36,942 nucleotides of DNA from Chlamydiota bacterium. GTDB taxonomy: Bacteria > Actinomycetota > Thermoleophilia > Solirubrobacterales > Solirubrobacteraceae. The stretch lies in contig CAJCHW010000064.1 of assembly GCA_903970125.1 (NCBI GenBank), positions 1-36,942 of the forward strand, given 5' to 3'. This document shows, piece after piece, positions 1 to 36,942 of the stretch. The notes beneath the pieces are model-generated. The model saw only the letters and a list, made by a program, of their open reading frames with translations. It was not told the DNA's origin and did no database searches. A program made the translations under genes and the position numbers. Within the stretch, counting starts at the first letter, position 1; every line of letters begins with the position of its first letter.

Positions 1-340
1 GCAGGTAGATCGGCGTTTGGCTGCGCGCGCAGCGCGCGCAGTAGTGCGCCATCAGGTCGGGCCCGTAGACGCGAGTGGCCTCGGGTTGCCCGAGCAGGTG
101 CAGCGCCCACACGAGCGGCTGGCCGTCGGGCACAACGAGCGTGGTGTCGAGCACGGCTGCCATCACGTCCGGGTACTCGTGCGCGGACATGATCAGGTTT
201 ACGGCGGCGGCGGTCACGCAGGCGCGCTGGTCCGCCGCGATCGTGGCGTCCATCCAGTCCATCACGGACTCGTAATTGGCAACGGCGAGCGGAATGCCCA
301 GGACAGACGCGCGCTTTAGATCCGTTGGCGCGCCGTTCAC
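1..340 (-). CDS. WecG/TagA/CpsF-family glycosyltransferase, 3' end cut by the window edge
   Basis: Reading the minus strand from a GTG at 340 gives 113 residues with no stop before the edge. The start VLGIPLAVANYESVMDWMD is followed by VTAAAVNLIMSAHEYPD, a VVPDGQPLVWAL segment and RVYGPDLMAHY. This is the conserved N-terminal half of the WecG/TagA/CpsF (GT26) family, which moves an N-acetyl-mannosamine-type sugar from UDP onto a polyprenyl-diphosphate-linked acceptor at the inner membrane face. Full members have about 230-260 residues, so roughly half is missing. The start lies about ten residues before the conserved LG-P motif, as usual; no strong Shine-Dalgarno is visible, so the start is moderately certain. 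It is divergent from the sigma-factor gene, 57 nt away, and fits the polysaccharide theme of the window. Confidence 0.85.
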   Translation of the reverse strand, partial: MNGAPTDLKRASVLGIPLAVANYESVMDWMDATIAADQRACVTAAAVNLIMSAHEYPDVMAAVLDTTLVVPDGQPLVWALHLLGQPEATRVYGPDLMAHYCARCARSQTPIYL

Positions 341-15260: not shown

Positions 15261-15396
15261 GCGCAATACGTTACGCGGCGGCGGCGACACGGGTAGCGAG
15301 TCAGCGCGGTGCCACGCGACCAAATCGCCCGAGGCGCGCGTTACCGTGGCTAAAGCAGGAGCACTGTCGCGCTCACGAACAGGACTGCCCACCCCT

Positions 15397-18011: not shown

Positions 18012-18102
18012 TGAGGCCACCACGTTAGATCCCAACGGACGCGTGCCGGCCACGGAGTGTGGGCTGGCGCTCGCCACCAAGCCGATAACCGCAGGCGCCG
18101 GG

Positions 18103-19062
18103 CTACTGGGCCGGCGCGTCGGCTTCGCGACTGCGGCGGCTCGAAGCGACCCATTCGACCGCGGTGGCTCCGTCACCCCAGTCGAACGTGGCCGGGTCGG
18201 CCATCGCCTCGGGGGTTTCAAGAATCCACTGTTCGTGGCACTGGGCGAGCGCCGCCTGTAGCTCGTCCACGCCCCCGATCCGTCGCGGGTCAAGCGCTGG
18301 TGCGACGTCTACCTCGACCTCATACTTCACGCGCCGCGCGCGCAGCGGCAGCACGAGCGCGTCGGTCTCGACGGCAAGGCGAGTTGTTCCGTCGGCAAGC
18401 ATTGCGGGCTTGCCAAGAAATCGTGTGCGGCGCGATCCGGGCATGTCGAAGAACAGGTAAACGGTCTCGCCCCGTTGCAGCAAAGCCCTGAGGATGGGGT
18501 AGGACCCCTTTGAGAGCACCATGCGGCTGGCAGAGGACCGCTGCCAACGTGCCAGCCGCCTGCCCCAGTAGTCGTGGCTGGGCGGCTCAAAGAACCACGG
18601 CCCGGCGACGGTGAAGGGGACGACTCCCAGCTGCGTGAGCGTTGATGGCCCTGTGTACAAAGGCCCGACGTGGCAGACGCTGATGAGCACCGCGCGATCG
18701 CTGTGGATGTGCTCGCGCAAGCGCGCCGCAGACTCGGGCGCGAGGATCGGCCGCGGCCAGGGCTGCCACTGCAGCGCCTCGGTCACGGTGCTCTCGATCA
18801 GTTGCAGTCGCGCAAGCTCGTGAACTTCGCCGGCGCGCGGCGTGCCCGCCACGACAGCTTCCATGATCTCGGTGGCCCGACGCCGAGCCTTTGCATCCCG
18901 TTGCCAGATCATGGAGGCCTTGCGTGTGGCCCGATTGATCACGAGCGGCGTTGGGACGATCCGCCGCAGCCACATCGAGGTCTTCATGCGAACGGCGAAA
19001 CTCGCGGGAGGCATCGGGGCGGGCGTCGATGGCCGCGGGGGCATGGCCAGCACAGTTGCCAT
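18103..19062 (-). CDS. LpxL/HtrB-like lysophospholipid acyltransferase family protein
   Basis: 319 residues from ATG 19062, chosen because AGGAAG lies 8 nt upstream; ATGs at 19086 and 19107 lack one. The C-terminal two thirds follow the LpxL/PIM-acyltransferase layout: AVLISVCHVGPLYTG (motif 1 with H131), VVPFTVAGPWFFEPP, RMVLSKGSYPILRALLQRGETVYLFFDMPGSRRTRFLGKPAMLADGTTRLAVETDALVLPLRARR. This fold transfers an acyl chain from acyl-ACP or acyl-CoA to a glycolipid at the inner membrane. Oddity: the catalytic H-x4-D/E dyad is not seen; the residue five after H131 is Tyr. It may use another acid or have changed chemistry. Middle gene of a methyltransferase-acyltransferase-GT4 set, suggesting decoration of a glycolipid or of the repeat unit. 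Confidence 0.75.
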   Translation of the reverse strand: MATVLAMPPRPSTPAPMPPASFAVRMKTSMWLRRIVPTPLVINRATRKASMIWQRDAKARRRATEIMEAVVAGTPRAGEVHELARLQLIESTVTEALQWQPWPRPILAPESAARLREHIHSDRAVLISVCHVGPLYTGPSTLTQLGVVPFTVAGPWFFEPPSHDYWGRRLARWQRSSASRMVLSKGSYPILRALLQRGETVYLFFDMPGSRRTRFLGKPAMLADGTTRLAVETDALVLPLRARRVKYEVEVDVAPALDPRRIGGVDELQAALAQCHEQWILETPEAMADPATFDWGDGATAVEWVASSRRSREADAPAQ

Positions 19063-19132
19063 GTCCGACGCTTCCTGAGCAGTCATCGGCTCGCTTGGGC
19101 GCGTCATGAGGTGGGAACGCCGGCTCTCGGTG

Positions 19133-25411: not shown

Positions 25412-26881
25412 ATGCTTGCGATGCGGCTGCAGCCACCGCGACTTCGCAGCACCGGCGTCATTGCGGTGGGTCTCGTGGTTACGGGCACGGCCTTGCTGGC
25501 GCTGCTGCCGGTCCAGCACGCGGGCGTCGTGGTCCTGCTCGCACCACTCGCAGTCACGCTGTTTGTAATCGTTATCCGCAGGCCCATTCTGACAGTGACG
25601 CTCGTGGTCGGGCTCACAGTTCTCTGCGAGGGCCCTGGCTTTGGGATCCTCACCTTCAGTTCCAAGCTGTACTCCCACATTGGCAAGGACCTGACGATCC
25701 TCGACGGCTTGGTGGTGCTCGCCGTCGTGTCGGTGGGGCTCGATCTGATGCGTCACCGCAGGCCGGTGCGCGTGCCGAGACTGCTGGCACTACCCCTGAC
25801 GATGCTGGCACTGGCGATGGCCGTGGGCGTCGTCGCAGGCCACGCAAACGGCGGGTCCCTGCGCTTTGTCGTGCTGTCCGAGGACGTGCTCGCGTATCTG
25901 TTGATGCTGCCGCTGGCAGTCGCCAACCTCGAACTCAGCGAGAGCCAGATCCGGCGCCTGCTCATAGGCGCGACGGCGGTGGCAGGCCTGAAGGCGGTAC
26001 TCGGCATCATCGAGGTGGCGGGCCATTTTGGCCAGCCGATCGAAGGCACCGCCACGCTGACCTACTACGAACCAACCGCCAACTGGATCGTGATGGTCGT
26101 CCTGTTCGGTGTTCTGGCAGCCGTCTTGGCTCGCGCGAAGCCGCCGCGATGGGTTCTTTTGACCAGTCCGCTGCTGATAGCGTCATTGCTGTTTTCCTAC
26201 CGCCGGTCGTTTTGGATTGGCACGGTTCTCGGTTTGCTGTTTGTGGTTCTCGTTGGCACGCGGCCGGCGTGGCGGCGTCTGTTGCTCCCGGCAGCCTTGG
26301 GCGTGGCGGTGGCAATCTGGGCGCTGGGATCCGTCAATTTCCAGGCCCAGGTTCCGGTGCTCAAGCGGGTGGCATCACTGAACCCGTCAAAGCTTGAGAC
26401 CAATGCCGAGGATCGCTACAGGCTCGATGAGCGTGCCAATGTGCTGGCCGAGATCCGAGCCCATCCGATCACGGGATTGGGCATGACGATTCCTTGGGCT
26501 GCCACAGCGACACCCTTGTCGGTGGAACACGAAGGCGGCCGTGAATACGTTCATTTTGCGGCACTCTGGTACTGGCTAAAGCTGGGCATACTCGGGCTGG
26601 TCGCCTATGTCGGTTTGCTCATATCGAGCGTGCTGCTGGCATGGCGGGCATGGCGTCGTAGCGCGGATCCCTGGTTGCGGGCGTTTGCGCTGGCATCGGT
26701 CTGCGGGTTGGCCGCGCTGATGGTGATCGAGACCACTGGAAGCTTCACCGGCGTAGACCCACGTTTCACGGTGCTGTTTGCCGCACAGCTGGGGATTCTC
26801 GCGCAGGTGGTACGCCTGGCGGGGGACCGTGATCAAGGCATTATGGTGGCGTCGGTTGACGGGGAGAGACTCCAGGAGTAA
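25412..26881 (+). CDS. Wzy-like O-antigen polymerase/ligase-family membrane protein
   Basis: 489 residues from ATG 25412; ATG 25421 is an alternative. About eleven hydrophobic segments, with the main extracytoplasmic loop near residues 310-385: RYRLDERANVLAEIRAHPITGLGMTIPW, then EYVHFAALWYWLKLGILGLVAYV. The R-x-N-x3-EI-x2-HPITGLG and H-x4-WYWLKLGILGL blocks are the polymerase/ligase signature. A short charged C-terminus follows the last helix. It should link repeat units outside the membrane. It lies 15 nt after the Wzz-kinase gene, so polymerase and chain-length control are probably co-expressed. Compared with the 5775-7931 protein it lacks TPR-like repeats and the motifs differ, so the two are not recent duplicates. 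Confidence 0.85.
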   Translation: MLAMRLQPPRLRSTGVIAVGLVVTGTALLALLPVQHAGVVVLLAPLAVTLFVIVIRRPILTVTLVVGLTVLCEGPGFGILTFSSKLYSHIGKDLTILDGLVVLAVVSVGLDLMRHRRPVRVPRLLALPLTMLALAMAVGVVAGHANGGSLRFVVLSEDVLAYLLMLPLAVANLELSESQIRRLLIGATAVAGLKAVLGIIEVAGHFGQPIEGTATLTYYEPTANWIVMVVLFGVLAAVLARAKPPRWVLLTSPLLIASLLFSYRRSFWIGTVLGLLFVVLVGTRPAWRRLLLPAALGVAVAIWALGSVNFQAQVPVLKRVASLNPSKLETNAEDRYRLDERANVLAEIRAHPITGLGMTIPWAATATPLSVEHEGGREYVHFAALWYWLKLGILGLVAYVGLLISSVLLAWRAWRRSADPWLRAFALASVCGLAALMVIETTGSFTGVDPRFTVLFAAQLGILAQVVRLAGDRDQGIMVASVDGERLQE

Positions 26882-26900: not shown

Positions 26901-28403
26901 CTACTGCTCACGGACGATTTCCGCTTTGGGTTCGTCGCTCAGTTGCCGCAGCGTAGCTGTGCTCACAGTTGTTGGTTTCGCGGCCGTGAACCGTGACACT
27001 GAAAACGTTTCTGTCCGGCGGACTTCGCCGGCCCGAAATCCCGGCGGCGCTGTCGTGAGCACAGCAGGAGGTGCCGGCGATCGGCCGGTGCGACGGGTAC
27101 GCAGCGCGACGAAGTCGACTTCTCGCGTTACCACGGACGGTTCCGACAGCAGCTCGATCCGAGGCAGATATATCGCTAACGGCGCAGCGCTGTACTGAGG
27201 CCCCACGACAACGCTTTGCGGCCAATGTCCAGACAGCGAACGCGCCGCGCCGCGCCAGTCATCGCGTTGATAGCCGGGGGTCAACTCGACGCCCGCGATC
27301 ACCAATAGCGAGATCGCGCACAGGGCGGCGCCCAAAAGCCCTCCGAGGCGCGGCGATGCTCGCACTCCCAGGCCGACGGCCACGATGACGCTGCACGGAG
27401 TCAGGGCGGCGATCACGTTGCGGCCGTTGAAGACATCCTCAATGTGTGTGGCGGCAAGCAGAGCTGGTAGCGCCAGTGCCCACACCGCGATCACGGCGGT
27501 GTCCCTTGCTGAGCGTTTCTCGTCTGCGTTGCCACGCCTCACCAGGAGCGCCACGGCGCCGGCTGCGAGCAGCGCAGCGATCGACGCTGTGAGGATCTCC
27601 AATGGGCTGTAAAGACCGACGAGGAAGTCCTTGGGAGCCTGGGCGAGGCGCGTCAAAAGCGAGGATGCTTGGATCCAGTCCGACTGGCCGTCGGAGCGCT
27701 GCCGGATCGCCAGGGGCGCGAGCGCAGCGCCGACGAGCACGACAATCCCGGCGGGCACAAGGATGCGCCGCCACCCCAGGCGGCGGGCGAGCACGACCGC
27801 CTCGGGCACGAACATAAACGCGGCGAAGTAATGCGTTAGCAAGGCAAGCGATGACGCCAGTGCCCACCACGCAAGATCACGGTTGCGATGGCTTTCCAAC
27901 ACGCGCTGCCATAACACAAACGCGATGGCGCAAAAAAGGATCAAAAGCGCGTAGCAACGCGCCTCTTGTGAGTCGTAGAACATCATCGGGTTGACGGTCG
28001 CTAGAGCAGCCGCCCACAACCCGACCCGCGGCGACGTGCGCCGGCCGGCGGCGTACACCACTGGGATTGTCACGGTGCCAATGAGAGCCGAGAAGGAACG
28101 GAAGCCAAGCACAGTGGCGCCAAAAATCCTTGTCCAGCCCCACACACCGATGTAGTACAGCGGCGGCGCAGACTCGCTCGTGGGCAGGTGCGAGAGCATG
28201 CCGAAAAAACCCTTGTGCACAAGTAGTATCGTCACCGCCTCATCGAGCCAGACGCTCTGTACATTCAACGTCGCAAACCGCAACGCTGCAGCGAGTGCCG
28301 TGAGACCGATAACGATCCACGCCGTTGTGGATATGCGCTGAAGCTGACTTAGACCCCGGTGCGAACTGCGACCCGGCACGGGGGAAGCTCCAGCGGCCGC
28401 CAT
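26901..28403 (-). CDS. GT39-like (GT-C) membrane glycosyltransferase
   Basis: 500 residues from ATG 28403, immediately preceded by an in-frame TTG. The first membrane helix is followed by SVWLDEAVTILL with D54-E55, the catalytic-loop acidic pair of GT-C enzymes such as ArnT and PMT. Next come SESAPPLYYIGVWGWTRIFGATVLGFRSFSALIGT and FYDSQEARCYALLILF, both typical GT39/PF13231 blocks. About ten membrane segments follow, then a C-terminal extracytoplasmic domain of about 120 residues (GYQRDDWRGAARSLSGHWPQSVVVGPQYS). These enzymes use polyprenyl-phosphate-linked sugars on the outer face, so it may add side-chain sugars after flipping. It is convergent with the polymerase gene. Confidence 0.88.
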   Translation of the reverse strand: MAAAGASPVPGRSSHRGLSQLQRISTTAWIVIGLTALAAALRFATLNVQSVWLDEAVTILLVHKGFFGMLSHLPTSESAPPLYYIGVWGWTRIFGATVLGFRSFSALIGTVTIPVVYAAGRRTSPRVGLWAAALATVNPMMFYDSQEARCYALLILFCAIAFVLWQRVLESHRNRDLAWWALASSLALLTHYFAAFMFVPEAVVLARRLGWRRILVPAGIVVLVGAALAPLAIRQRSDGQSDWIQASSLLTRLAQAPKDFLVGLYSPLEILTASIAALLAAGAVALLVRRGNADEKRSARDTAVIAVWALALPALLAATHIEDVFNGRNVIAALTPCSVIVAVGLGVRASPRLGGLLGAALCAISLLVIAGVELTPGYQRDDWRGAARSLSGHWPQSVVVGPQYSAAPLAIYLPRIELLSEPSVVTREVDFVALRTRRTGRSPAPPAVLTTAPPGFRAGEVRRTETFSVSRFTAAKPTTVSTATLRQLSDEPKAEIVREQ

Positions 28404-28509
28404 CAAATGAGCCTAGCGCAGGGTTGGTAGGCGCAGCTGGGCCGGCTCACCAAATCGCCGCGGTCATGTGGAGAAGCGGCCCGGCGCCCAACGGCGCGAA
28501 CCGTCGACG

Positions 28510-30315
28510 CTAGTTGCTCGCGAGCAGTTCTTGAACCTGCGTGGTGAACGCGCCCTTGGCCTGCCCTTGGTGCTGAAGCGCCCCAAAGTAGGCTTCGGGT
28601 TCGGTCGAGGTTCCTGTGACCTGCTGGTCGCGGACCTGGTAAAGCATGAACATCCCAAAGCGGCTTCCGAGCGTCTGTCGCATTTCGTTGAATGTCGTGT
28701 GCAGCGTGGCGGCGGCTTCACCGTAGGTCATGCACTTGTTCAGTCCATAGTTTTCGGTCAGGCAGCGACCGTTGTCGGTGGTCACTCCCCACTCCGTGAT
28801 GTCGATGGGAATCGTGGACGGCGCGCCGTGGGCGGCGGTCTCGTTGAGAATGTCCTGGAGCTTGGTATGCCATTCCGAGCCGTAGGGATGGCTGACCCAG
28901 CCGGCCACGTAGTCGCTGAAGTTAGGAACGGCGGCGTACACCGCATTCATCCAGTTTCCGGTCCAATCTTCGACCTGGGCCAAAAGGCCCACGGTGACGC
29001 CGGTGGAGGAAATCGCTTCTGCGGCTTCCTTGAAGCGGATTGCGTAGGTCTGAGCCCGCGCCATGTATGACGGTTCGCCGGCATTGTCGCCGTATTGGTA
29101 ACCGTAGGAGGTCTCGTTGCCGAACTCGATCGACTGGATCGCGAGGCTTGCATCGGAGCGTCCCGCCCAGAACGTACCTCCGGGTCCGTACGCTGCGGCC
29201 CAACCCGCGACATTCTGCGCTTCGGCAGCCGAGGGCATGCGGCCGGTGAACGTGGCCAGCGGCAGCACCCTGACGCCAATCGCCGCGTACTTTTCGATTG
29301 CCGGCTGTATCTGCGCAGCGGAATCCTCGATTGGGAATGCGAGTCTGACGAGCTTGGCTCCGAGCAGGGAGGTGGAGCTGAAGTCAGTAGGTTCCACGCC
29401 GGAGTTGATCCCGGTCTGGGGCATATTGGCGGTGGTCGATTCCGTGGCGGCGTATGTGATCGAGACTTCAAGCCCCCACGTGCTGCCGTCAACGGCGGTC
29501 CGGACGCTGTAGGAGACTGTCTTGCCGGGTACCGCAGGCGGGGTTACCGTTGTGCCGGCGACCACCGAGTACTGTACGGCTTCGCCGGGCACCTTCGTGG
29601 CCAGCACGTATGTGCTTGCTCCGGCGACTGCGTTCCAGTCGAGTGTGTCGCCGGAAACGGTCAACGTGGGCGCAGCCTGGCGCTGAGTGGCTTCGGTGAC
29701 GGAAGTAGCCGCTGGGTACGTGATGGAGACCTCGGCCGACCATGGCGCGCCGTTGACGGCTGCGCGCACGGCGTAAATGACGGTCGTGCCTGGGACTGGC
29801 GGCGGTGTCACCGACGTTGTCGAGACCACCTCTGCCTGGGGCGACTGGCCGGGCACGTCCCGCGCCACCACGTAGTCACCGACGCGGCCGACACGGCTCC
29901 ATTGCAGCTGCTGGCCGGAAACGATCAGGGTTGGAGCGCCGATGTGCGACGCCGTTGTGGCGTTGCCCGCGGTCGTGTGTGCAACATGGCCCAGGCGTCG
30001 CTCGGCCGCCTGCAGGTGGCGTCCGGCCTTTTGGAGCTTGCCGCGCACGCTGGTGCAGCCGGCGGAATGTGCGCCGAGGCACTTCCGCAGCGTCTTGGCG
30101 TCGGACACGAAGCTGCGTTCGGCTGCGCGTGCATGCTTCGATGCGCTGCGCAGCGATCCTGGTGAGACATGAAAGCTTGCGCCGGCTGTGCTTGCGCCGG
30201 CATTTCCCGCCGCCTCGGTAGCTGCTGCGATCGAGACCATGCCTGCGGTCAGGCACACCACTGCGAGTCGTTGGCCGATCCTGCGCCGGGCAATCCGTGC
30301 CGGGTAAATTCTCAT
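28510..30315 (-). CDS. Secreted protein with two FN3-like modules and a GH-A-type catalytic domain, riboswitch-controlled
   Basis: 601 residues from ATG 30315; AAAGGAG lies 10 nt upstream. The signal peptide (RRRIGQRLAVVCLTAGMVSIAAATEAAG) leads to a helical, basic region (about 55-112). Two tandem beta modules follow (about 127-203 and 216-291), near-duplicates of each other: both begin APTL-VSG, contain SVTPPPVPGTTVIYAVRAAVNG / TVTPPAVPGKTVSYSVRTAVDG and end EVSITY; they look like fibronectin-III folds. The catalytic half has KLVRLAFPIED, SIEFGNETSYGYQ (E401, acid/base), AGWVSHPYGS and IPIDITEWGVTTDNG (E508, nucleophile), the clan GH-A layout. It probably cleaves exopolysaccharide or a wall glycan; substrate unknown. 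A c-di-GMP-I riboswitch precedes the start, so expression should follow c-di-GMP level. The region 28404-28509 between it and the GT39 gene holds no gene. Confidence 0.82.
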   Translation of the reverse strand: MRIYPARIARRRIGQRLAVVCLTAGMVSIAAATEAAGNAGASTAGASFHVSPGSLRSASKHARAAERSFVSDAKTLRKCLGAHSAGCTSVRGKLQKAGRHLQAAERRLGHVAHTTAGNATTASHIGAPTLIVSGQQLQWSRVGRVGDYVVARDVPGQSPQAEVVSTTSVTPPPVPGTTVIYAVRAAVNGAPWSAEVSITYPAATSVTEATQRQAAPTLTVSGDTLDWNAVAGASTYVLATKVPGEAVQYSVVAGTTVTPPAVPGKTVSYSVRTAVDGSTWGLEVSITYAATESTTANMPQTGINSGVEPTDFSSTSLLGAKLVRLAFPIEDSAAQIQPAIEKYAAIGVRVLPLATFTGRMPSAAEAQNVAGWAAAYGPGGTFWAGRSDASLAIQSIEFGNETSYGYQYGDNAGEPSYMARAQTYAIRFKEAAEAISSTGVTVGLLAQVEDWTGNWMNAVYAAVPNFSDYVAGWVSHPYGSEWHTKLQDILNETAAHGAPSTIPIDITEWGVTTDNGRCLTENYGLNKCMTYGEAAATLHTTFNEMRQTLGSRFGMFMLYQVRDQQVTGTSTEPEAYFGALQHQGQAKGAFTTQVQELLASN

Positions 30316-30333
30316 CGCGTCCTAGCTCCTTTA

Positions 30334-30400
30334 GGTAGCCGGGCTGTCTGCTTGAGACCCCTTGCTTTGCGAACCCACCTCGCGGCGGGGGTGCCTTTTT
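30334..30400 (-). ncRNA. c-di-GMP-I (GEMM) riboswitch
   Basis: On the minus strand AAAAAGGCACC leads into a helix CCCGCC / GGTGGG closed by the GNRA tetraloop GCGA (30389-30374). The invariant CGCAAAGC follows (30371-30364). A second helix GGGTCT-CAAGC-AGAC then carries ACAGCCCGGCTACC, ending at 30334. This order (GGCA, GNRA-capped stem, CGCAAAGC, GGGTCT...AGACAGCC-GGCTACC) matches the GEMM-I consensus, the tetraloop docking into the second stem. The outer P1 helix is not obvious. The Shine-Dalgarno AAAGGAG begins 2 nt after the aptamer, so translational control is likely. The remaining gap up to 30545 holds a hairpin (separate entry) and no gene. Confidence 0.82.
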
Positions 30401-30499
30401 CGGGAGTGGCGCCAACTGGCTGGAGCGAATGCTCCTTGCGCTTACCCGCGTCCTTGCATCTGTTTAGTCGGGCTGCGGGGGGTGATCGCTGAGTGCACG

Positions 30500-30529
30500 A
30501 GGGCGTGGTGGACGCATGTCCACGGCCCT
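30500..30529 (-). terminator. Hairpin after the four-gene minus-strand operon
   Basis: A perfect 6-bp stem GTGGAC-GCAT-GTCCAC (30508-30523) is extended by AGGGC / GCCCT outer arms (30500-30504, 30525-30529). It starts 16 nt beyond the stop of the last GT4 gene on the transcribed strand. No U-tract follows; candidate intrinsic terminator separating the operon from the riboswitch gene. Confidence 0.5.
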
Positions 30530-30545
30530 GTAAGCGTGGGCTTTG

Positions 30546-31727
30546 TTAGGCCAGAAGCGCCGAGGCGAAGGCCTCGGTGAAGCACTGTGGGCGGAACTGG
30601 GCCGCGTTGGCCCGCAAGGCGCGGTCGTCGAAGCTGATTGTCTCGGCACGCTCGATGGCGGCGCAGAGTCCGTCCACGGTCGCGTCGTCGTAGAGCACGC
30701 CGGTCTCGCCGTCGAGGACCGAGTCGCGCACACCACCGCGCGCGTTTGCGATCACTGGCAGCCCGGCCGCCTGTGCCTCGACGGGCACGATCCCGAAATC
30801 CTCCTCGCCGGGCAAAAGCAGTGCTCGGCAGCGTGCGAAGAGCTCGGCGACGTGGGCGTCGGGCACGTGGCCGAGAATCGTGGTGTCGGGTCCTGCCAGC
30901 GACCGCACCTGTTCAAGCCCACGGCCGTCGCCGGCCACGATCAGGGGGCGCTCAAGCCGCGTGCATGCTTGCACTGCGAGGTCGACCCGTTTGTAGGGGA
31001 CCACGCGGCCGAAGACGAGATATGGAGGCCTTTGAGCGCCGGTTAGGCCGTCGCCGGCCCCCGCGGGCGAATCGGACCCCGCGGGCGAATCGGTTGCCGG
31101 CGGGCGATGCAGAAAGCGCTCGACCTCCACGGGCGGGTGAATCACGACCGCCTCGCGCTTGTAGTAGTCGGCGATGCGCTGGGCCACCACGGTGGAGTTC
31201 GCGATAAAGCGGTCGACCCCGGCGGCACCGCGCAGGTCGACGCGGCGCAGCCGTGGCAGCGCGGCTGCGAAAGCCAGCCGCCCGATCGGAGAGACGCGCT
31301 CGGTCGCCAGGAATGAGGGATCCCAGGCGTAACGCATGGGTGTATGGCAGTAGCAGACGTGCGTGGCCTGTGCCGGCGCCCTGACGTTCTTGGCGCACGC
31401 GTGGTTTGAGGAGATCACCAGGTCAAAGCCCCGCAGGTCAAAGCTGCGAAAGGCCGCGTCCATCAGTGGCAGCAGCCTGGCGTAGTGGCGCGTGGCACCG
31501 GGCAGGCGATTCAGGAAGGAGGCGTGCACGGGTCGATCGGTGATCACCGCCGGCCACGGCTCTGGGTCATAGACGGAGGTGAACAGCTCCGCGTGAGGGA
31601 ACAGCTCAAGAATTGCAGCGAGCACCTTCTCTGAGCCACCGGGGATGGTCAACCACTCGTGGCTGACAGCCACGCGGCGGTAGCGGTCGGCCAGCGCGGC
31701 GCGGAGCTCATCCCGGCGCCCGCTCAT
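30546..31727 (-). CDS. GT4-family glycosyltransferase (mannosyltransferase-like)
   Basis: 393 residues. Acceptor half: VAVSHEWLTIPGGSEKVLAAILELFPHAELFTSVYDP, FDLVISSNHACAKNVRA, THVCYCHTPMRYAWDPSF, blocks common to a subgroup of GT4 enzymes in exopolysaccharide loci. After the interdomain linker comes PPYLVFGRVVPYKRVDLAVQAC, PLIVAGDGRGLEQVRSLAG and EEDFGIVPVEAQAAGLPVIANARGG with an intact EX7E motif. It should add a sugar, possibly mannose, at the cytoplasmic face. The linker holds an 18-bp tandem duplication coding S-D-S-P-A-G-type residues. Its start overlaps the upstream GT4 stop by 4 nt; it is the last gene of the four-gene operon. Confidence 0.92.
   Translation of the reverse strand: MSGRRDELRAALADRYRRVAVSHEWLTIPGGSEKVLAAILELFPHAELFTSVYDPEPWPAVITDRPVHASFLNRLPGATRHYARLLPLMDAAFRSFDLRGFDLVISSNHACAKNVRAPAQATHVCYCHTPMRYAWDPSFLATERVSPIGRLAFAAALPRLRRVDLRGAAGVDRFIANSTVVAQRIADYYKREAVVIHPPVEVERFLHRPPATDSPAGSDSPAGAGDGLTGAQRPPYLVFGRVVPYKRVDLAVQACTRLERPLIVAGDGRGLEQVRSLAGPDTTILGHVPDAHVAELFARCRALLLPGEEDFGIVPVEAQAAGLPVIANARGGVRDSVLDGETGVLYDDATVDGLCAAIERAETISFDDRALRANAAQFRPQCFTEAFASALLA
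31059..31094. repeat. 18-bp tandem duplication in a glycosyltransferase gene
   Basis: CCCCGCGGGCGAATCGGA is followed directly by the same 18 bp with T instead of the last A. In the protein it repeats a six-residue Asp/Ser-Pro-Ala-Gly unit in the linker between the two GT-B halves, so the length change should be tolerated. Confidence 0.9.
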
Positions 31728-32851
31728 GCCGCGATGCGCTCCGCGAGAGCCTGCACTGAGTACTCGGCCTCGGCAAGCCTGCGCCCGGCGGCGGCCAGCG
31801 TGGAGGCGCCCTCGCGCAGCACACCAACGATCGCGTGCGCGAACGACTCAGCGTCATCGCCTCGGAGATAGTGCTCGCCGGCGACGGCGTCGAGCCCTCG
31901 GGCCGCAAACCCGGTGGCAACGATCGGCACCTGGTACGCGAGCGCTTCGACGAACTTCAACGGTGTGCCGCCGCCGGTGGTCACGGGCACGACCACGCAC
32001 GCGGCCTGCTCGTAGACGCTTTCGAGGTCGTCCACGAACCCGGCGGTTTCGATACGTGGGTCCGCTGGCGGCCACTCCCGCGAGCCGCGGCCCACGAGCA
32101 GCAGGCGCGCGTCGGGAAGATCGCGCCAAACCCGTGGCAGGATCTCCTCGACCAGCCAGTCGCGCCCGACGCGGTTGGGCGCGTAGTGGAAGTCCGCCAC
32201 CATCAGCAGCAGCGCGCCCGGGGCAGCTGCGCTGTTGACCGGGTGGATCGCTGCGACGTCGACGGCGTTGGGGACATAGCGAAGGTGGGCCTCTGGCACC
32301 ATCTTGTGGGCCGCCTTCATATCGTTGCGGCTGACCATCCAGCTCTCCGCCGCGGCTCTCAAAAGGCGGCGTTCATGAATCTGGGTTGCGGTCGCGGAGA
32401 TCGCGAACCGCGGTTCGGTCACGCCGAAGTTCGCGGGACCGACGTTGTGGGAGTTGTAGATCACGGGGCGCTGACGGGCGACGTCCAGCAGCGCGGTTGC
32501 AGCGCTTGGATCGCCCGCGACCACGCGCCCGCGCTTGGGCTCAAGGGCCAGTCGCATCCCCTCCGAGATCAGCTCCGGACTGACGGCGCGGGCACAACTG
32601 TTGGGCACCGCATGCACGCGCGCCTGCGCGTATGCGGCGGCTCGCCGCAGGCCCCGTGATGGAGAGATGGGATGGAATGCCAGATCATCGATTCCGAGGT
32701 ACTCCGGTGAGGGGTCTTCGCCGGAGAGCAGCACATAGGCCAGATCGACCGGGCCAAGCATGGCCAGGGCGCGAATGCACGTGTATGTACGCAGAGCGCG
32801 GCCACTGCCAAGCTGGGGCTCAAACGCGGAGACATAGAGATCCCTGGTCAC
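31724..32851 (-). CDS. GT4-family glycosyltransferase
   Basis: 375 residues; start overlaps the stop of the hydrolase gene (ATGA). The sequence shows LYVSAFEPQLGSGRALRTYTCIRAL, RPVIYNSHNVGPANFG, WMVSRNDMKAAHKMVPEAHLRYVPNAVDV, GALLLMVADFHYAPNRVGRDWLVEEILPRV, ARLLLVGRGS, AGFVDDLESVYEQAACVVVPVTTGGGTPLKFVEALAYQVPIVATGFAARGLD. The N-x-DFxYxPN and GGGTPLKFVEALA blocks are typical of a GT4 subgroup related to sugar transfer protein TuaC/WcaC. The first Glu of EX7E is replaced by Gly, as in that subgroup. It presumably adds a repeat-unit sugar. Third of four overlapping genes. Confidence 0.88.
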   Translation of the reverse strand: MTRDLYVSAFEPQLGSGRALRTYTCIRALAMLGPVDLAYVLLSGEDPSPEYLGIDDLAFHPISPSRGLRRAAAYAQARVHAVPNSCARAVSPELISEGMRLALEPKRGRVVAGDPSAATALLDVARQRPVIYNSHNVGPANFGVTEPRFAISATATQIHERRLLRAAAESWMVSRNDMKAAHKMVPEAHLRYVPNAVDVAAIHPVNSAAAPGALLLMVADFHYAPNRVGRDWLVEEILPRVWRDLPDARLLLVGRGSREWPPADPRIETAGFVDDLESVYEQAACVVVPVTTGGGTPLKFVEALAYQVPIVATGFAARGLDAVAGEHYLRGDDAESFAHAIVGVLREGASTLAAAGRRLAEAEYSVQALAERIAA

Positions 32852-34689
32852 GGCGTCGTGGCGGCCCGACCTTGCGACCGGGCGAGTTCATCGGCGAGGC
32901 TCTCGTCGATCAGGCTGTGCACGCGCTGTTGTACCCACAGTGGCCGCAGTGTGTGAACCTCCTCGGGCAGATCGATGTACTGCAGTGAGACGTTCGGCCA
33001 GCGTGGCAACCGCTCAACGCGGCCTTCGGCGAGCAGGCGGTGGTAGAGCGGCTCCTGGCCCGCAAACACAATCGCCAACCGGCGATTCTCGCCAAGCAGG
33101 CGATCGAAGTCGCGATCGAGCGTGTCGGCGCGCCGCGCGCCACGGCTGCTGATGCGTGAAGGCAGTTCGCGCAGCCTGCGCCAGGCACCTGCGACGAGCA
33201 TCCGTGCCGTGCGCACATGGGCCGAGATCGTCGTCTGACCGGCGATTACACGCTTCCATGCCGCCAGACTCATCGCCTTTTGCGCGAGCGTGCGTGCCTC
33301 TCGCTGGGCCAGTGAGAGCCCGCCGTCCCACACCAGGGCACCTGGGTTGAGGAGTATCGCCCCGGCCACGCGACGATCGTCAAGGATCGTTCGCAGTGCC
33401 CAGTATCCCCCCGCACACAGGCCGGCCAATACGAACCGCGCAGGCAATCCCCTGCCCTCCAACGCGTCGAGGACTGCACGGACCTGTGCCACGTAGGCGT
33501 CGGTGTAGAACGATCGCGAGTCGGCAAGCGGGAGCGGATCGCCGTCAGCGTCGCCGATGCCTGCCAGATCGACGCGCAGGCTTGGCACGCCGCGCGCCGC
33601 CCAGCGTCGTGCCGCCTCGACCCACATGCGGTTGGGTCCCGTGTGTCGCTGGGGGCCGGCGTTGAGCCAGACGACGCACATCTGCGCGCGCTGGCCGGCC
33701 GGCTCGGCGATCACGCCGAACGCGTCCCCCGAGGGGTGAGGGCAGGCAAAGGGAGTCTCGCGCACACCCACGCCGAAACCCTCCGACAGCTCCACCGGCG
33801 ACTGCGCCGAGGGCGCTACCGACGGCTGCGAGCTCGGCCGCGAGCTGCTGCGGCCGCGAGTCGGGGGCTCGCCTGCCTGAAGCCAAGTGGCGACCCGGTC
33901 AAAAACCGCCTGGGCGGGTACGGCGTACTGCGGCTCCAGTGTCACCATCCGTTCGTAGCCCTTGCCGGGTGCGACCGTCAACGCGGCAGCCGACGCTTCG
34001 ATCGCGCCTTTGAGGCGCTCATCGACCGCGCGTCCGTCGCGCTCGAGCAGCAGCACGCGGCGCTGGTTGGCATCGGGCAGGGAAAGCTCGGTGAGATCCG
34101 TCGCGTCGAGTTCCGCGAGCGTCTGAGGACTCAGCAGGTACCCCGCCACCCCAAGCGATCCCTCGGGGACGTCCGCGGAACGCTGCCCACGGTCGCCGGC
34201 CTGGCCTGCTTCCATCGCTGAGAACGCACGCAGCTCGCGCGTGTGGCTGCGCCCGCGCGCGTGGACCGCCCACAGTGCGAGGTCGTCAACTGGGGCGCCG
34301 GCGGCGGTGGCACGGTACGCGACGAGCCCGCCGATGCCAATGCCCACGGCGACGATGCGGCTCGCGTCAGACTCATCGGCAAGCCGGCCGGCGGCGACTG
34401 CGACTGCGTCTGTCCAGGACTCCAACTGCTTGGGGTCGCGCGGTCCGCCGCCGCTGTCGCCGCTGCCTGGAAAGTCGATGCGCAGCGTCGCGTGGCCACT
34501 GCTTGCGAGCTGTTGCGCCCAGGTCCGGCGGCTACGGTACGAGCACATGTCCTCCCAGCCGAATGGGGGGCATAGAAGCACCGCGATGGGACTACGCGGC
34601 TCTGCAGCCGCATGAAAAATCGCAAAGATCGGCTTGCCGGCGCCGTCGATGTACAGCGGCCGGGGCGCGGCCGGGGCGGTCGGTCTCAT
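32848..34689 (-). CDS. Tandem alpha/beta-hydrolase protein with altered nucleophile elbows
   Basis: 613 residues; both ends overlap neighbours by 4 nt. The N-terminal half (about 1-270) is an alpha/beta-hydrolase: IAVLLCPPFGWEDMCSYRS, LASSGHATLRIDFPGSGDSGG, RIVAVGIGIGGLVAYRA. After a Ser/Pro-rich linker (about 275-300) a second hydrolase follows: FACPHPSGDAFGVIAEP, VVWLNAGPQRHTGPNRMWVEAARRWAARGVPSLRVDLAGIGDADG, FVLAGLCAGGYWAL, a late LPEEVHTL with a possible catalytic His. The GxSxG elbow reads G-I-G-I-G in the first half (no nucleophile) and G-L-C-A-G in the second (Cys425). Fold and context resemble hydrolases found with exosortase or polysaccharide loci. It could be a cysteine-type acyl/ester hydrolase or a non-enzymatic scaffold; the substrate is unknown. 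Confidence 0.75.
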   Translation of the reverse strand: MRPTAPAAPRPLYIDGAGKPIFAIFHAAAEPRSPIAVLLCPPFGWEDMCSYRSRRTWAQQLASSGHATLRIDFPGSGDSGGGPRDPKQLESWTDAVAVAAGRLADESDASRIVAVGIGIGGLVAYRATAAGAPVDDLALWAVHARGRSHTRELRAFSAMEAGQAGDRGQRSADVPEGSLGVAGYLLSPQTLAELDATDLTELSLPDANQRRVLLLERDGRAVDERLKGAIEASAAALTVAPGKGYERMVTLEPQYAVPAQAVFDRVATWLQAGEPPTRGRSSSRPSSQPSVAPSAQSPVELSEGFGVGVRETPFACPHPSGDAFGVIAEPAGQRAQMCVVWLNAGPQRHTGPNRMWVEAARRWAARGVPSLRVDLAGIGDADGDPLPLADSRSFYTDAYVAQVRAVLDALEGRGLPARFVLAGLCAGGYWALRTILDDRRVAGAILLNPGALVWDGGLSLAQREARTLAQKAMSLAAWKRVIAGQTTISAHVRTARMLVAGAWRRLRELPSRISSRGARRADTLDRDFDRLLGENRRLAIVFAGQEPLYHRLLAEGRVERLPRWPNVSLQYIDLPEEVHTLRPLWVQQRVHSLIDESLADELARSQGRAATTP

Positions 34690-36942
34690 GCGCGCACGGC
34701 CTCGGCGTGCGCCTGGATTGGCACGCGGCCACGAAGATTGACGGCGCTCAGCGTGCCGTCCAGAGGGGCCGCCCCCGGGTGGCTCGCGCGTAGCTCCAGC
34801 GTGCGCCCGCGACCGGGCTCAACGCAGAAGGCATCGTCGTTGGGGATGAATCCGGGAATCTCGACACGCACGCCGTAAGCCAGACGTTTGCAGGCCACGC
34901 TCACCGCCACTGCGCCACCACCGGTGTCTATGGCTGTGGCTTGGAGGCCGAGCTGCTCGGCACTCTCGACGCCGCTCGGGTAGCCGACTGGGAAGTGCAC
35001 AGCCTGCGAGAGCAGTCGCGTGGTCGGCCCGTCCTGTGCTTCGAGACTGACAACGATCAGATCCTGCGCGGGCGGCCCGAATCGGTAGCTCCATGACGCG
35101 TCGACGAAGCCGCCAAGTAGGGCCTCCAGATCGCGCTCACAGGTGCCGCGCGGGGCAAGCTCGACCGCCTCGACCGCCTCGCCCACGCAGCGCTCAAGAT
35201 CGCTGTAGAGCGACACGCGCAGTTGGGCGCTGAGGGCGCTTGGGCGCTCATTGGCCATGTGGGCCACTATGCCGTTCAGACCCTCGTCGGTCGTCCACAC
35301 GGCGACGGGCGCAAAGGCACGGCGGAGGTGGTGGTAGGCAGCCTTGGGTGCTCCGCATTGATCGATCAGGCCCCAGCCGGCTCCGGCTTTTAGATCGCGC
35401 AGCCAGAGCACCAGGCCGCCGGCGCACGGCGATGCCTGGCGTCGCCACTCACCGAAGACGGCAGCCATAACCTCGCCGCTGACCGAGCGCGAGAGCGCCA
35501 GGTAGTGGTCCGGATCCTCGCTGCGCAAAGCAGTCGGGTCGACGCCGAAGAGCAACGCCAGGTAGTGGTCGCGCACGTCCTCAAAGTCCCAGTCGTTGCC
35601 AACGTCGCGCGGTATCCCGGCTTTCCAGCGGGGATCGCTCAGCTGCTGCCCTGCTGAAGCGTCGCCGAAGCTTCGATCCAGCGTCGCTTGCTCGGGCACG
35701 TTGGATATCGCCAGGCACTCCGATGCAAACAGGACCCCGGCGCGACGGACGTCCTCCAGCGGGCGCCGGTAGCCGCCGACACCAAAGTAGTTGGCGACGC
35801 CGGCGTTGGTGCGAAACGGCAGCCCCGGGCCGCAGGGCGCAGACGGTATGTACGCAGCGTCGGCGCGGCTGTCGGCCACGAGCGAGGGCAGCAGCTCGTC
35901 GAAGAGCTCGCCGCGCGCGAGCGCGCGATCCAGGCCGAGCATCGTCACCTGCTGCTCGACCTCGCTGTTGCCGCACAGCACAACCAGACTGGGGCGACCC
36001 GCGAGCTCGTTCAGCACCCCGCGGGCCTCGGGCTCGACGGCTCCCCGGAAACCCTCGTCGGCGACCGGGTAGTCCATGTTGGCGAACATGAAATCCTGCC
36101 AAACAAGGATCCCGAGCTCGTCACAGAGATCGTGGAAAGCGGGCACCTCGTAGGCGCCGGTGCCGGGAATCCGCAGCATGTTCATGCCGGCGTCCCGGAC
36201 CTGCTCAAGCGTTGCACGCAGCTCGCCGGTGGTTGCCTGCAGGCCGGTCAGGTCCAGCGGCGTCCACAACGCCCCGCGGCAGAACACGGGCACTGCGTTG
36301 ACGTGCAGGTCGAGCCCTTGCGAGACCACGTCGTGCCCAGGCTCGGGCCCAAACGCGAGCGTGCGAAAGCCGACGCGCCCGCACTCGATCTCGCAGGGTC
36401 CTTGCGTTGTGTCGACGCGTAGGCGCACCTCATAGAGCGTGGGCTCACCGTGCGTGTGCGGCCACCAGAGCTCGACGTCTCCCACGCGCAGCTCGCCCTC
36501 GAAGGCGACGCAGTTGTGGCTGCTTACAGGCTCCAGGTCGCGCGCGCCGGCCTGCGCCTCGGTGCACTCCAGCGCAACGCGCACGGAAGTGGCTGACGGC
36601 CGGGACAGCTCAAGCTCGACTGCGCGCGGCGCAGGTCCACCGAGGCCGCGCAAGCAGCCACTGACTGAGAGCACTCCCGTGGCACCGTCAACGCGGGTGC
36701 GCAGCGCCAGTTGCTGCACAGCTGTCGTGCGCAGGCGATGCAGGTAGACCGGTCGCCACGGGCCAACCGCGGCGGGTCCGGGCGCGAAGCCGGGAGTGCG
36801 GCCCATGAGCATCGTGCGAAAGAAGCGCAGGCCGCCGTTTGCGACCAGGCGTGTGCGCCAGCGTGCTCGTGGCCGGCGTTGGATCTCGAGCTCTGCAGCC
36901 AGCGCGCGGCAGCGGATGGCCAGCTCGTTGTGCTCATGCAGG
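34686..36942 (-). CDS. GH2 beta-mannosidase-like glycoside hydrolase, 5' end cut by the window edge
   Basis: About 751 residues are visible; the frame runs off the right edge in phase (LHEHNELAIRCRAL...), so the internal ATG at 36812 is not the start. The visible N-terminal part, RRPRARWRTRLV...LRFFRTMLMGRTPGFAPGPAAVGPWRPVYL, is the beta-mannosidase carbohydrate-binding domain with its conserved VGPWRP. An Ig-like middle domain (VELWWPHTHGEPTLYEVRLRV) follows, then the TIM barrel: GALWTPLD, RDAGMNMLRIPGTGAYE, LGILVWQDFMFANMDYP, VVLCGNSEVEQQ (acid/base Glu, visible residue about 327) and VLFASECLAISN (nucleophile Glu about 408). C-terminal beta domains end at 34686. No signal peptide can be judged because the start is missing. 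GH2 mannosidases remove beta-mannose from glycans; here it may edit repeat units. First visible gene of the operon. Confidence 0.88.
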   Translation of the reverse strand, partial: LHEHNELAIRCRALAAELEIQRRPRARWRTRLVANGGLRFFRTMLMGRTPGFAPGPAAVGPWRPVYLHRLRTTAVQQLALRTRVDGATGVLSVSGCLRGLGGPAPRAVELELSRPSATSVRVALECTEAQAGARDLEPVSSHNCVAFEGELRVGDVELWWPHTHGEPTLYEVRLRVDTTQGPCEIECGRVGFRTLAFGPEPGHDVVSQGLDLHVNAVPVFCRGALWTPLDLTGLQATTGELRATLEQVRDAGMNMLRIPGTGAYEVPAFHDLCDELGILVWQDFMFANMDYPVADEGFRGAVEPEARGVLNELAGRPSLVVLCGNSEVEQQVTMLGLDRALARGELFDELLPSLVADSRADAAYIPSAPCGPGLPFRTNAGVANYFGVGGYRRPLEDVRRAGVLFASECLAISNVPEQATLDRSFGDASAGQQLSDPRWKAGIPRDVGNDWDFEDVRDHYLALLFGVDPTALRSEDPDHYLALSRSVSGEVMAAVFGEWRRQASPCAGGLVLWLRDLKAGAGWGLIDQCGAPKAAYHHLRRAFAPVAVWTTDEGLNGIVAHMANERPSALSAQLRVSLYSDLERCVGEAVEAVELAPRGTCERDLEALLGGFVDASWSYRFGPPAQDLIVVSLEAQDGPTTRLLSQAVHFPVGYPSGVESAEQLGLQATAIDTGGGAVAVSVACKRLAYGVRVEIPGFIPNDDAFCVEPGRGRTLELRASHPGAAPLDGTLSAVNLRGRVPIQAHAEAVRA

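What the first reader, a model, noticed from the sequence alone, without database searches (positions are those of the whole stretch)
30334..30400. c-di-GMP-I riboswitch in front of a secreted glycosidase-like gene inside an exopolysaccharide locus
The minus-strand leader shows a GCGA-capped 6-bp stem, CGCAAAGC and a GGGTCT/AGACAGCC...GGCTACC element in the exact GEMM-I order, ending 2 nt before the Shine-Dalgarno. c-di-GMP normally promotes polysaccharide synthesis. Here it would switch a putative polysaccharide-acting enzyme with FN3-like modules, giving a direct link from second messenger to matrix remodelling or dispersal. The other two glycosidase-like genes show no such element, so only this one would respond.
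Basis: partly seen in the sequence, partly recalled or inferred. Interest (0 to 1): 0.8.

Follow-up and report, generated by a model that had tools for sequence, protein, structure and literature searches.

The report
c-di-GMP riboswitch controlling a matrix-cutting enzyme
A soil actinobacterium carries an RNA switch, of a kind that senses the "settle down" signal c-di-GMP, directly in front of a secreted-looking sugar-chain-cutting enzyme in its slime-making gene cluster; the RNA is real, and comparison with relatives predicts, without proof yet, that the signal shuts the enzyme off.

Summary
The riboswitch is real. Window 30405-30331 (-) matches Rfam RF01051 at 52.6 bits (cut-off 35); its three ligand-contact positions are canonical. 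Close named relatives are Solirubrobacterales.

The gene behind it (601 aa) has a signal-peptide-like start, a helical hairpin, two FN3-like domains and a (beta/alpha)8 glycosidase domain. The best PDB fold matches of that domain are PslG, the Psl-matrix enzyme of Pseudomonas.

The arrangement is conserved: 11 of 24 genus genomes and 3 of another genus have the riboswitch in front of a homologue. In the genus, close relatives of the catalytic domain occur in the same 7 of 24 genomes as those of the locus' polymerase and chain-length kinase.

Mechanism: no terminator-like site lies between aptamer and gene. In these leaders the Shine-Dalgarno abuts the aptamer and can pair with its 5' strand as an extension of P1, with compensatory changes. 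So c-di-GMP should switch translation OFF, opposite to the leaders of a 210-aa surface protein. The sign is a prediction; the window also has a rival ON hairpin.

Verdict: ordinary riboswitch class, new and interesting circuit.

The parts
30331..30405 (-). c-di-GMP-I (GEMM-I) riboswitch aptamer, RF01051
   Evidence: cmscan 52.6 bits, cut-off 35, E 1.2e-07; positions equivalent to G20, A47, C92 are G, A, C (numbering recalled, the three positions are named in a passage of PMC4744006)
30401..30406 (-). 5' strand of P1 (CUCCCG); CUCC is complementary to GGAG of the Shine-Dalgarno, the last G can pair with C at 30334
   Evidence: sequence; constrained fold of the bound state pairs them; covariation in relatives
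30326..30330 (-). Shine-Dalgarno AGGAG abutting the aptamer; start codon ATG at 30315-30313
   Evidence: sequence
28510..30315 (-). riboswitch-led gene, 601 aa, secreted-looking glycosidase-like protein
   Evidence: translation; no Pfam match at E 0.001 or NCBIfam match at E 0.01; matches in 28 of 146 family genomes, own included
29449..30162 (-). N-terminal module of that protein: helical hairpin (residues 52-120) and two FN3-like beta domains (about 128-289)
   Evidence: AF2 model, mean pLDDT 72.3, pTM 0.35; listed Foldseek hits are mostly tandem FN3 domains
28513..29433 (-). catalytic domain, (beta/alpha)8; invariant Glu of GNE (residue 401) and of TEWG (residue 508) are the presumed acid/base and nucleophile
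   Evidence: alignments A1, A2; AF2 pLDDT 95.4, pTM 0.93; top three fold matches PslG
26901..28406 (-). PMT-type glycosyltransferase, next gene downstream
   Evidence: PF13231
23813..25396 (+). chain-length/BY-kinase-like protein of the EPS locus
   Evidence: TIGR03018 and TIGR01007, both below their curated cut-offs; co-occurs with the catalytic domain
25412..26881 (+). Wzy-type polymerase/ligase of the EPS locus
   Evidence: PF04932 above cut-off; co-occurs with the catalytic domain
30546..36812 (-). upstream operon-like run: GH2-like protein, alpha/beta hydrolase protein, two GT4 glycosyltransferases
   Evidence: overlapping stop/start codons
8864..16860 (.). core EPS genes: initiating sugar transferase (8864-10492 +), two GH5-like proteins (10572-12038 -, 12850-14217 -), CpsB (14475-15500 -), Wzx flippase (15142-16860 +)
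   Evidence: Pfam

Best explanation
A c-di-GMP-I riboswitch controls translation of a secreted PslG-like glycosidase that acts on the exopolysaccharide made by its own locus. Without ligand P1 is weak and the Shine-Dalgarno is available, so the enzyme is made. With c-di-GMP bound, P1 closes; its 5' strand (CUCC) pairs with the abutting Shine-Dalgarno (GGAG) and translation stops. High c-di-GMP would thus protect the matrix, while leaders of other surface genes (the 210-aa protein, perhaps the pilins of the genus) are predicted to turn ON; falling c-di-GMP would release the matrix-cutting enzyme. Shown: the aptamer, its conserved position, the predicted fold, the EPS context, the complementarity and covariation. 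Inferred: ligand binding, the OFF sign, the substrate, the role in release. My separate estimates: real riboswitch 0.97, c-di-GMP as ligand 0.92, translational control 0.85, OFF sign 0.6, own EPS as substrate 0.65.
For: RF01051 52.6 bits. Ligand positions G/A/C in 130 of 133 parsed family aptamers, window included. 32 GGDEF and 11 EAL matches in the genome. No terminator-like site on the - strand between aptamer and gene. In 26 distinct abutting leaders kept, pair 10-99 is U-A in 14 and C-G in 9 (3 broken; Fisher p 2.7e-5, related sequences), 11-98 pairs in 22, 12-97 in 19, 9-100 in 13. The bound state makes the Shine-Dalgarno harder to open in the 13 GH-A leaders (mean +1.09 to +1.95 kcal/mol over four context lengths; OFF-like 7-9, ON-like 2-4) but easier in 18 leaders of the 210-aa protein (-1.71 to -1.92; ON-like 10-12, OFF-like 0-2; Mann-Whitney p 0.0004 to 0.0037); 11 other abutting leaders (cl5+cl7) show no shift (-0.22 to +0.22); with the GH-A 5' strands shuffled, the mean bound cost reached the real one in 0 of 40 trials. 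Window: opening cost free 1.7, bound 7.3 with 12 nt of upstream context; 3.0 and 4.8 with 25 nt. Fold: PslG chains are the top three PDB hits, E 1.2e-11 to 8.3e-11, TMq 0.64-0.67. Catalytic domain (at least 53% identity), Wzy (at least 52%) and BY-kinase-like protein (at least 52%) occur in the same 7 of 24 genus genomes and, at those levels, in none of the other 17. In G112 four upstream neighbours are 61-74% identical and the N-terminal module 55%, but the catalytic domain 27% and the kinase 34%.
Against: Energies are model-based. With a generic Shine-Dalgarno choice and 30 nt of context the GH-A signs were mixed and the window's difference was only 0.7 kcal/mol. CAP-like (14) and cluster-6 (6) leaders, which are not abutting, also lean OFF in the uniform run (+0.58 to +1.06 and +0.62 to +1.80), so an OFF lean is not special to this design. 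In the window position 13-94 is a C/U mismatch, and its 3' strand can form a -8.1 kcal/mol hairpin over the Shine-Dalgarno, the strongest of the 13 GH-A leaders, which fits an ON switch. Shuffling bases of the 5' strand is reached in 54 of 500 trials for all 38 abutting leaders (26 of 500 for the Shine-Dalgarno part; GH-A 14, GHL15 21, cl5 410, cl7 208 of 500). The shuffle on bound cost does not support the GHL15 leaders (32 of 40 reach). The ON side is also not firm: a test for specific P3-strand/Shine-Dalgarno pairing fails for the 210-aa leaders (150 of 300 reach) and the genus pilins (107 of 300) but is passed by other pilins (1 of 300) and CAP-like leaders (2 of 300), which the energies call neutral or OFF. 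One search kept only leaders with CGAA and a CG that sets the register, so its first two pairs are by construction. Relatives are not independent. The fold match has 12-14% identity and about 5 A rmsd. Co-occurrence is partly linkage of neighbouring genes, and several genomes are incomplete. G095 and G104 hold 44-45% relatives of the domain without a Wzy relative. In G105 kinase and polymerase lie on another contig, and L247 shows no EPS neighbour.
Confidence: 0.5

Rival explanations
1. ON switch. Without c-di-GMP the P3/P1 3' strand (GGCUACC) pairs with AGGAGCU and hides the Shine-Dalgarno; ligand binding frees it. The enzyme would be a synthesis-coupled editor, needed when the EPS is made.
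For: The window and L110 have the GGCU-A-CC/GG-AGCU hairpin, -8.1 and -5.6 kcal/mol. The 210-aa leaders of the same family look ON by energy. The title of a reference listed in PMC10485009 says that PslG levels are critical for Psl biosynthesis (reference entry only).
Against: Across 38 abutting leaders this hairpin is weaker than with swapped P3 strands from other leaders (own -3.83, swapped -5.44, 300 of 300), and it is only -0.6 to -1.2 in five of 13 GH-A members (L113, L121, L131, L132, L133). The 5' strand covaries with the Shine-Dalgarno.
Confidence: 0.27
2. The aptamer senses another cyclic dinucleotide or is an orphan GGC-type variant.
For: RF03167 scores 57.6 in the window and is above its cut-off in 6 of the 7 riboswitch-bearing loci among 12 named relatives scanned. 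One homologue (L131) has A at position 20, and L174 has C.
Against: The RF03167 consensus has G where the window has A (CGCGAAGC against CGCAAAGC). The window keeps G/A/C at the three contacts. RF03167 is below its cut-off in the window.
Confidence: 0.05
3. The enzyme feeds on foreign polysaccharide or cell wall, and its place in the EPS locus is incidental.
For: No substrate data; one search lists mannanases, glucanases and glucuronidases after PslG. L247 shows no EPS neighbours and L235 only the PMT gene.
Against: Three or more EPS-type neighbours in 10 of 13 flanks. Catalytic domain type tracks polymerase and kinase, including the swap in G112.
Confidence: 0.2
4. The aptamer is a relic with no regulatory effect.
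For: A passage of PMC6366702 says that only 11 of the C. difficile 630 c-di-GMP riboswitches (12 class I and 4 class II) are functional.
Against: Conserved in front of homologues in 14 genomes of two genera with an intact binding site in the window.
Confidence: 0.05

Closest known systems
c-di-GMP-I (GEMM-I) riboswitches, Rfam RF01051 (Vc2, Vc1, Cd1, Bc1, Bc2)
   Same: Same aptamer, contact positions and kind of target (surface and secreted genes). PMC6366702 says that V. cholerae has two class I switches of opposing direction, neither acting by transcription termination (passages).
   Different: Here the Shine-Dalgarno abuts the aptamer and is predicted to pair inside an extended P1. PMC4744006 found no apparent terminator or anti-Shine-Dalgarno for Vc1 and calls its mechanism unclear (passages).
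C. difficile ZmpI/PPEP-1 circuit
   Same: A class I c-di-GMP riboswitch lies in the mRNA of a secreted enzyme that releases adhesins and is negatively regulated by c-di-GMP, while class II riboswitches activate adhesins and pili (PMC6366702, passages).
   Different: Protease cutting adhesins there, predicted glycosidase cutting EPS here; opposite signs come there from two riboswitch classes and here, by prediction, from one class with different leaders; transcription termination there, predicted translation here.
PslG of Pseudomonas aeruginosa (GH39)
   Same: Top three fold matches; glycoside hydrolase encoded in the EPS operon whose polymer it cuts (PMC10485009, passages; endo-beta-glucanase per the title of PMC11912335, of which I saw passages).
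   Different: 12-14% identity; the catalytic domain has no PDB sequence match at E 0.01 and, in the window, no Pfam match; FN3-like N-terminal module; a riboswitch in front.

Membership tests
c-di-GMP-I riboswitch (RF01051) | covariance-model score above gathering (35 bits) | tested here: met
   52.6 bits, full length
c-di-GMP-I riboswitch (RF01051) | ligand contacts G20, A47, C92 | tested here: met
   G, A, C by structural parse (numbering recalled, positions named)
c-di-GMP-I riboswitch (RF01051) | binds c-di-GMP | not testable with these tools
   needs in-line probing or calorimetry
c-di-GMP-I-GGC (RF03167) | score above gathering (59 bits) | tested here: not met
   57.6 bits in the window; met in 6 of the 7 riboswitch-bearing loci among 12 named relatives scanned
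c-di-GMP-I-GGC (RF03167) | G at the position of A47 | tested here: not met
   window A; model consensus G; none of 133 family aptamers has G there. That this base defines the variant is my recollection of its naming.
Clan GH-A glycoside hydrolase | (beta/alpha)8 barrel | tested here: met
   AF2 pLDDT 95.4, pTM 0.93; 398 PDB matches at E <= 0.001, the 50 listed mostly glycoside hydrolase barrels (clan membership recalled)
Clan GH-A glycoside hydrolase | catalytic Glu pair (NE and a C-terminal-half Glu) | tested here: met
   N106-E107 and E214 invariant in 19 sequences of A2; clan rule recalled
PslG / GH39 | sequence membership | tested here: not met
   no PDB profile hit at E <= 0.01; no Pfam hit for the window domain, member hits of A1 are PF00150 (5 of 8) and PF11790 (1 of 8)
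PslG / GH39 | cuts the EPS of its own operon | not testable with these tools
   only co-occurrence and swap evidence

The most novel reading that the evidence does not exclude
In Solirubrobacterales one riboswitch class is wired with both signs in one cell. Class I aptamers with the Shine-Dalgarno inside P1 turn OFF a locus-specific matrix glycosidase, while class I aptamers with other leaders turn ON the 210-aa surface protein and perhaps pilin. Behind the same riboswitch the catalytic domain is exchanged together with the EPS polymerase and chain-length kinase, so each lineage keeps, under c-di-GMP control, the enzyme that cuts its own matrix.
Probability: 0.35. Interest if true: 0.72.

Novelty: new variant of a known kind. 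Interest (0 to 1): 0.57.

Why it matters
How c-di-GMP acts in this actinobacterial order seems little described: in the library searched, no paper holds c-di-GMP, riboswitch and Solirubrobacter together, and none holds 'c-di-GMP riboswitch' and 'glycoside hydrolase' together; that says nothing about other wording or papers not held. If right, a short RNA links the second messenger directly to a matrix-cutting enzyme, with opposite sign to other surface genes, and the exchange of catalytic domain with polymerase offers a way to pair EPS types with the enzymes that cut them. The sign is testable with one reporter.

Tried and rejected
I first read the window leader as an ON switch (hairpin over the Shine-Dalgarno; note). 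The comparison across leaders went against it as a class feature, so I demoted it to a rival. A first energy run (generic Shine-Dalgarno choice, 30 nt of context) gave mixed signs for the GH-A leaders; it was followed by a run with fixed core helices and a uniform run over four context lengths. Specific P3-strand/Shine-Dalgarno pairing as the ON device of the 210-aa and genus pilin leaders, which I had seen by eye, was not supported against swapped partners (150 and 107 of 300 reach); after re-reading this I lowered the novel case from 0.40 to 0.35. A conserved hairpin upstream of the aptamer was tested by shuffles and is weak (GH-A mean z -1.0, 10 of 18 below -1; pilin group 43% below -1): not claimed. 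A transcription terminator as expression platform: none on the - strand in 28300-30900. Pfam families for the 601-aa protein: none. A first scan for named relatives with the single protein found none; the alignment A1 found 26 loci.

Rows dropped: 133 aptamers were parsed, those I fetched (the listing was itself cut). 117 of 133 had a usable start, Shine-Dalgarno and upstream sequence. Thirteen were set aside by hand for an unclear start or gene, among them L117, a GH-A member without a recognisable Shine-Dalgarno; the others fell out in the script. Starts of L091, L032, L098 and L133 were set by hand. L133 was read one base off its ATG (noticed); its GGAG and its catalytic domain are unaffected. 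Identical leaders were counted once in the 39, 38, 26 and counts. One search keeps only leaders with CGAA after position 92 and a CG that sets the 5' register, so the window itself (CUAA) is not among its 26. Cluster labels other than prepilin (PF07963 in the one member scanned, L005) and GHL15 (PF14885 in the two scanned) are by eye.

Full report
Observation. A covariance-model scan of all 36,942 bases gives one RNA family match above its cut-off, the c-di-GMP-I riboswitch RF01051, at 30405-30331 on the minus strand, 52.6 bits against a cut-off of 35. A permissive scan of the same window (E up to 0.5) lists the same element only, there best scored by the sibling model RF03167 (c-di-GMP-I-GGC) at 57.6 bits, below its own cut-off of 59. 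The positions that contact c-di-GMP are G, A and C, as in 130 of the 133 aptamers parsed in this bacterial family. The RF03167 consensus differs from the window at the middle one. The host genome gives 32 GGDEF and 11 EAL matches, so the signal is very likely made and broken down there.

Host. The assembly is unnamed, 2.66 Mb, 87% complete. Named records with the closest catalytic domains are Solirubrobacterales and Solirubrobacteraceae metagenome-assembled genomes and Svornostia abyssi J379 (lineage).

The gene. The aptamer match ends where the Shine-Dalgarno AGGAG begins; ATG follows at 30315. The 601-aa protein has no Pfam match at E 0.001 and no NCBIfam match at E 0.01. Its N-terminal 294 residues are modelled with modest confidence (pLDDT 72.3, pTM 0.35) as a first helix, a helical hairpin and two beta domains, and the listed structural hits are mostly tandem FN3 domains. 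The C-terminal 307 residues are modelled with high confidence as a (beta/alpha)8 barrel (pLDDT 95.4, pTM 0.93). Its top three PDB matches are all PslG (E 1.2e-11 to 8.3e-11, TMq 0.64 to 0.67, 12-14% identity). The two glutamates expected of such enzymes are invariant in 19 sequences. A profile search of PDB sequences finds nothing at E 0.01, so this is likeness of fold, not membership in GH39.

Conservation. Matches to the protein occur in 28 of 146 family genomes and 15 of 24 genus genomes, the window's own included. Crossing this with the riboswitch searches, 11 of the 24 genus genomes have RF01051 directly in front of a homologue (G000, G095, G098, G099, G100, G101, G104, G105, G108, G110, G112). 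So do three genomes of another genus (G139, G140, G141). Of the four remaining genus genomes with a match, G109 and G111 are cut by contig ends within or just before the gene, and G092 and G106 match only in the FN3-like or N-terminal part and show no riboswitch at the loci scanned. Relatives without a riboswitch exist (L136-L138, L145-L148), and of 12 named loci scanned only 7 have one.

Regulon. The genus has 45 matches in 20 of 24 genomes; the family has matches in 89 of 146. Behind 133 aptamers the largest product groups are type IV prepilins (23), a roughly 210-aa protein with a signal-peptide-like start (18), the glycosidases related to the window's (18), CAP-like proteins by eye (15) and a group of 10 in which two of two members scanned match PF14885 GHL15. 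In the window's own genome the two other aptamers precede a prepilin and a 209-aa protein.

Substrate. In 10 of 13 flanks read, homologues of at least three EPS-type window genes lie within the stretch (20 kb, 12 kb for L243) around the riboswitch gene. In the 8 genus ones (L236-L243) they include the BY-kinase-like gene; in L244 and L246 they include a Wzy homologue about 5-6 kb away. L245 has only a Wzy homologue 8 kb away, L235 only the PMT gene and L247 nothing. The window's Wzy (at least 52% identity), BY-kinase-like protein (at least 52%) and catalytic domain (at least 53%) occur in the same 7 of 24 genus genomes (G000, G099, G105, G108, G109, G110, G111) and in none of the other 17 at those levels; G095 and G104 have 44-45% relatives of the domain and no Wzy relative, and lower-identity kinases are found in most genomes. 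In G112 four upstream neighbours are 61-74% identical to the window's and the N-terminal module is 55% identical, but the catalytic domain is 27% and the kinase 34% identical, and no Wzy relative is found (G112 is 63% complete). Conversely L121 shares 68% of the catalytic domain and no detectable N-terminal module. This fits an enzyme whose specificity changes with the polymer. Linkage of neighbouring genes explains part of the co-occurrence. PslG, the nearest solved fold, itself sits in the operon of its polymer (PMC10485009, passages).

Sign of control. No terminator-like site lies on the minus strand between aptamer and gene, so translation is the likely level. In 40 leaders the start codon lies within 20 nt of position 93. 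In 39 distinct ones the 5' strand pairs with the Shine-Dalgarno-bearing strand at a mean of -5.79 kcal/mol, against -3.84 with 5' strands of other leaders (0 of 300 trials reach). Exchanging 5' strands among abutting leaders is reached in 24 of 300. Shuffling bases within the 5' strand is reached in 54 of 500, or 26 of 500 for the Shine-Dalgarno part; by group 14 of 500 for GH-A, 21 for GHL15, 410 for cl5, 208 for cl7. So the support rests on the GH-A and GHL15 leaders. In 26 distinct leaders with the same register, pair 10-99 is U-A in 14, C-G in 9 and broken in 3; 11-98 is standard in 22, 12-97 in 19 and 9-100 in 13 (Fisher p 2.7e-5 for 10-99 and 0.056 for 12-97, not corrected for relatedness). 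Both pair types occur within the GHL15 group, which makes more than one change likely.

Energies agree as a class. The bound state makes the Shine-Dalgarno harder to open in the 13 GH-A leaders at four context lengths (+1.94, +1.95, +1.09, +1.15 kcal/mol), and easier in the 18 leaders of the 210-aa protein (-1.75, -1.92, -1.83, -1.71). The five genus pilins average -3.67 to -1.48, but with 40 nt of context they split 2 ON to 2 OFF. Other abutting leaders (cl5+cl7) and pilins of other genera show little or no shift. CAP-like and cluster-6 leaders also lean OFF. A test for specific pairing of the P3 strand with the start region does not support the 210-aa leaders or the genus pilins, and does support other pilins and CAP-like leaders. 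So ON is fairly supported by energy for the 210-aa class, tentative for genus pilins and unsettled elsewhere. For the window alone the sign is less sure: it has a C/U mismatch in P1 and a -8.1 kcal/mol rival hairpin; the comparison gives 1.7 free and 7.3 bound, or 3.0 and 4.8, by context length, and an earlier run gave a difference of only 0.7.

Known comparisons. PMC6366702 (passages) describes class I and class II c-di-GMP riboswitches acting as off and on switches in C. difficile, including a class I riboswitch in the mRNA of the protease ZmpI, which is negatively regulated by c-di-GMP and releases adhesins that are themselves activated by it. The present circuit would be the same logic with a polysaccharide enzyme and one riboswitch class. 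PMC4744006 (passages) reports that Vc1 promotes production of a secreted protein with no apparent terminator or anti-Shine-Dalgarno.

Verdict. The element is a standard member of a known riboswitch class. The circuit, with a PslG-like enzyme of the locus under a leader that is predicted to hide the Shine-Dalgarno in P1, is a new variant of a known kind. No binding, expression or activity was measured.

Noticed in passing
L005 (G000:C133), aptamer at 17575-17651 (-): The pilin riboswitch of the same genome follows a GGDEF-EAL gene (matches at 18626-19102 and 17864-18565, both in an 840-aa frame, same strand). A TTGACT-16-TACACT promoter-like pair lies before the aptamer (spacing counted by eye).
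   Followed up: partly
L131 (G141) and L174 (G011): Two family aptamers have A or C instead of G at position 20. PMC9481103 links a key change in the binding pocket of c-di-GMP-I variants to c-AMP-GMP sensing (passages).
   Followed up: no
L144 (G086), 3049-3192 (-): A c-di-AMP riboswitch (RF00379, 76.7 bits) lies about 0.4 kb upstream, on the same strand, of a match to the N-terminal/FN3-like part of the window protein: a related protein may answer to a different second messenger.
   Followed up: no
L112 (G096:C2:81710-81786): A c-di-GMP-I riboswitch precedes a protein with an HD_5 domain (PF13487), possibly a c-di-GMP phosphodiesterase and so a feedback loop.
   Followed up: no
L101, L108, L125, L095, L096: Aptamer, Shine-Dalgarno and start codon look like the pilin or 210-aa leaders, but no clear matching reading frame follows: decayed or replaced genes.
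   Followed up: no
L133 / Svornostia abyssi J379 CP088295: The glycosidase gene behind the riboswitch changes reading frame in its N-terminal part as deposited.
   Followed up: no
window 32848-34689 (-): One reading frame of 613 aa matches both exosortase-A-system-associated hydrolase families, TIGR03101 and TIGR03100, both below their curated cut-offs, apparently two such domains fused.
   Followed up: no
window 3676-5013 (-): A 445-aa frame joins a ribonucleotide-reductase-small-chain-like region to an SCP2 domain.
   Followed up: no
G092, G114, G117, G123, G028: Several genomes carry two RF01051 aptamers 0.8-1.2 kb apart; where I read the genes (all but G028, one of two in G123) they are pilin or 210-aa genes.
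   Followed up: no
L217 (CAMCUD010000001.1): A contig titled Bifidobacterium breve carries the Solirubrobacterales-type locus; its contig length equals that of G141:C1, so the record title looks wrong.
   Followed up: no
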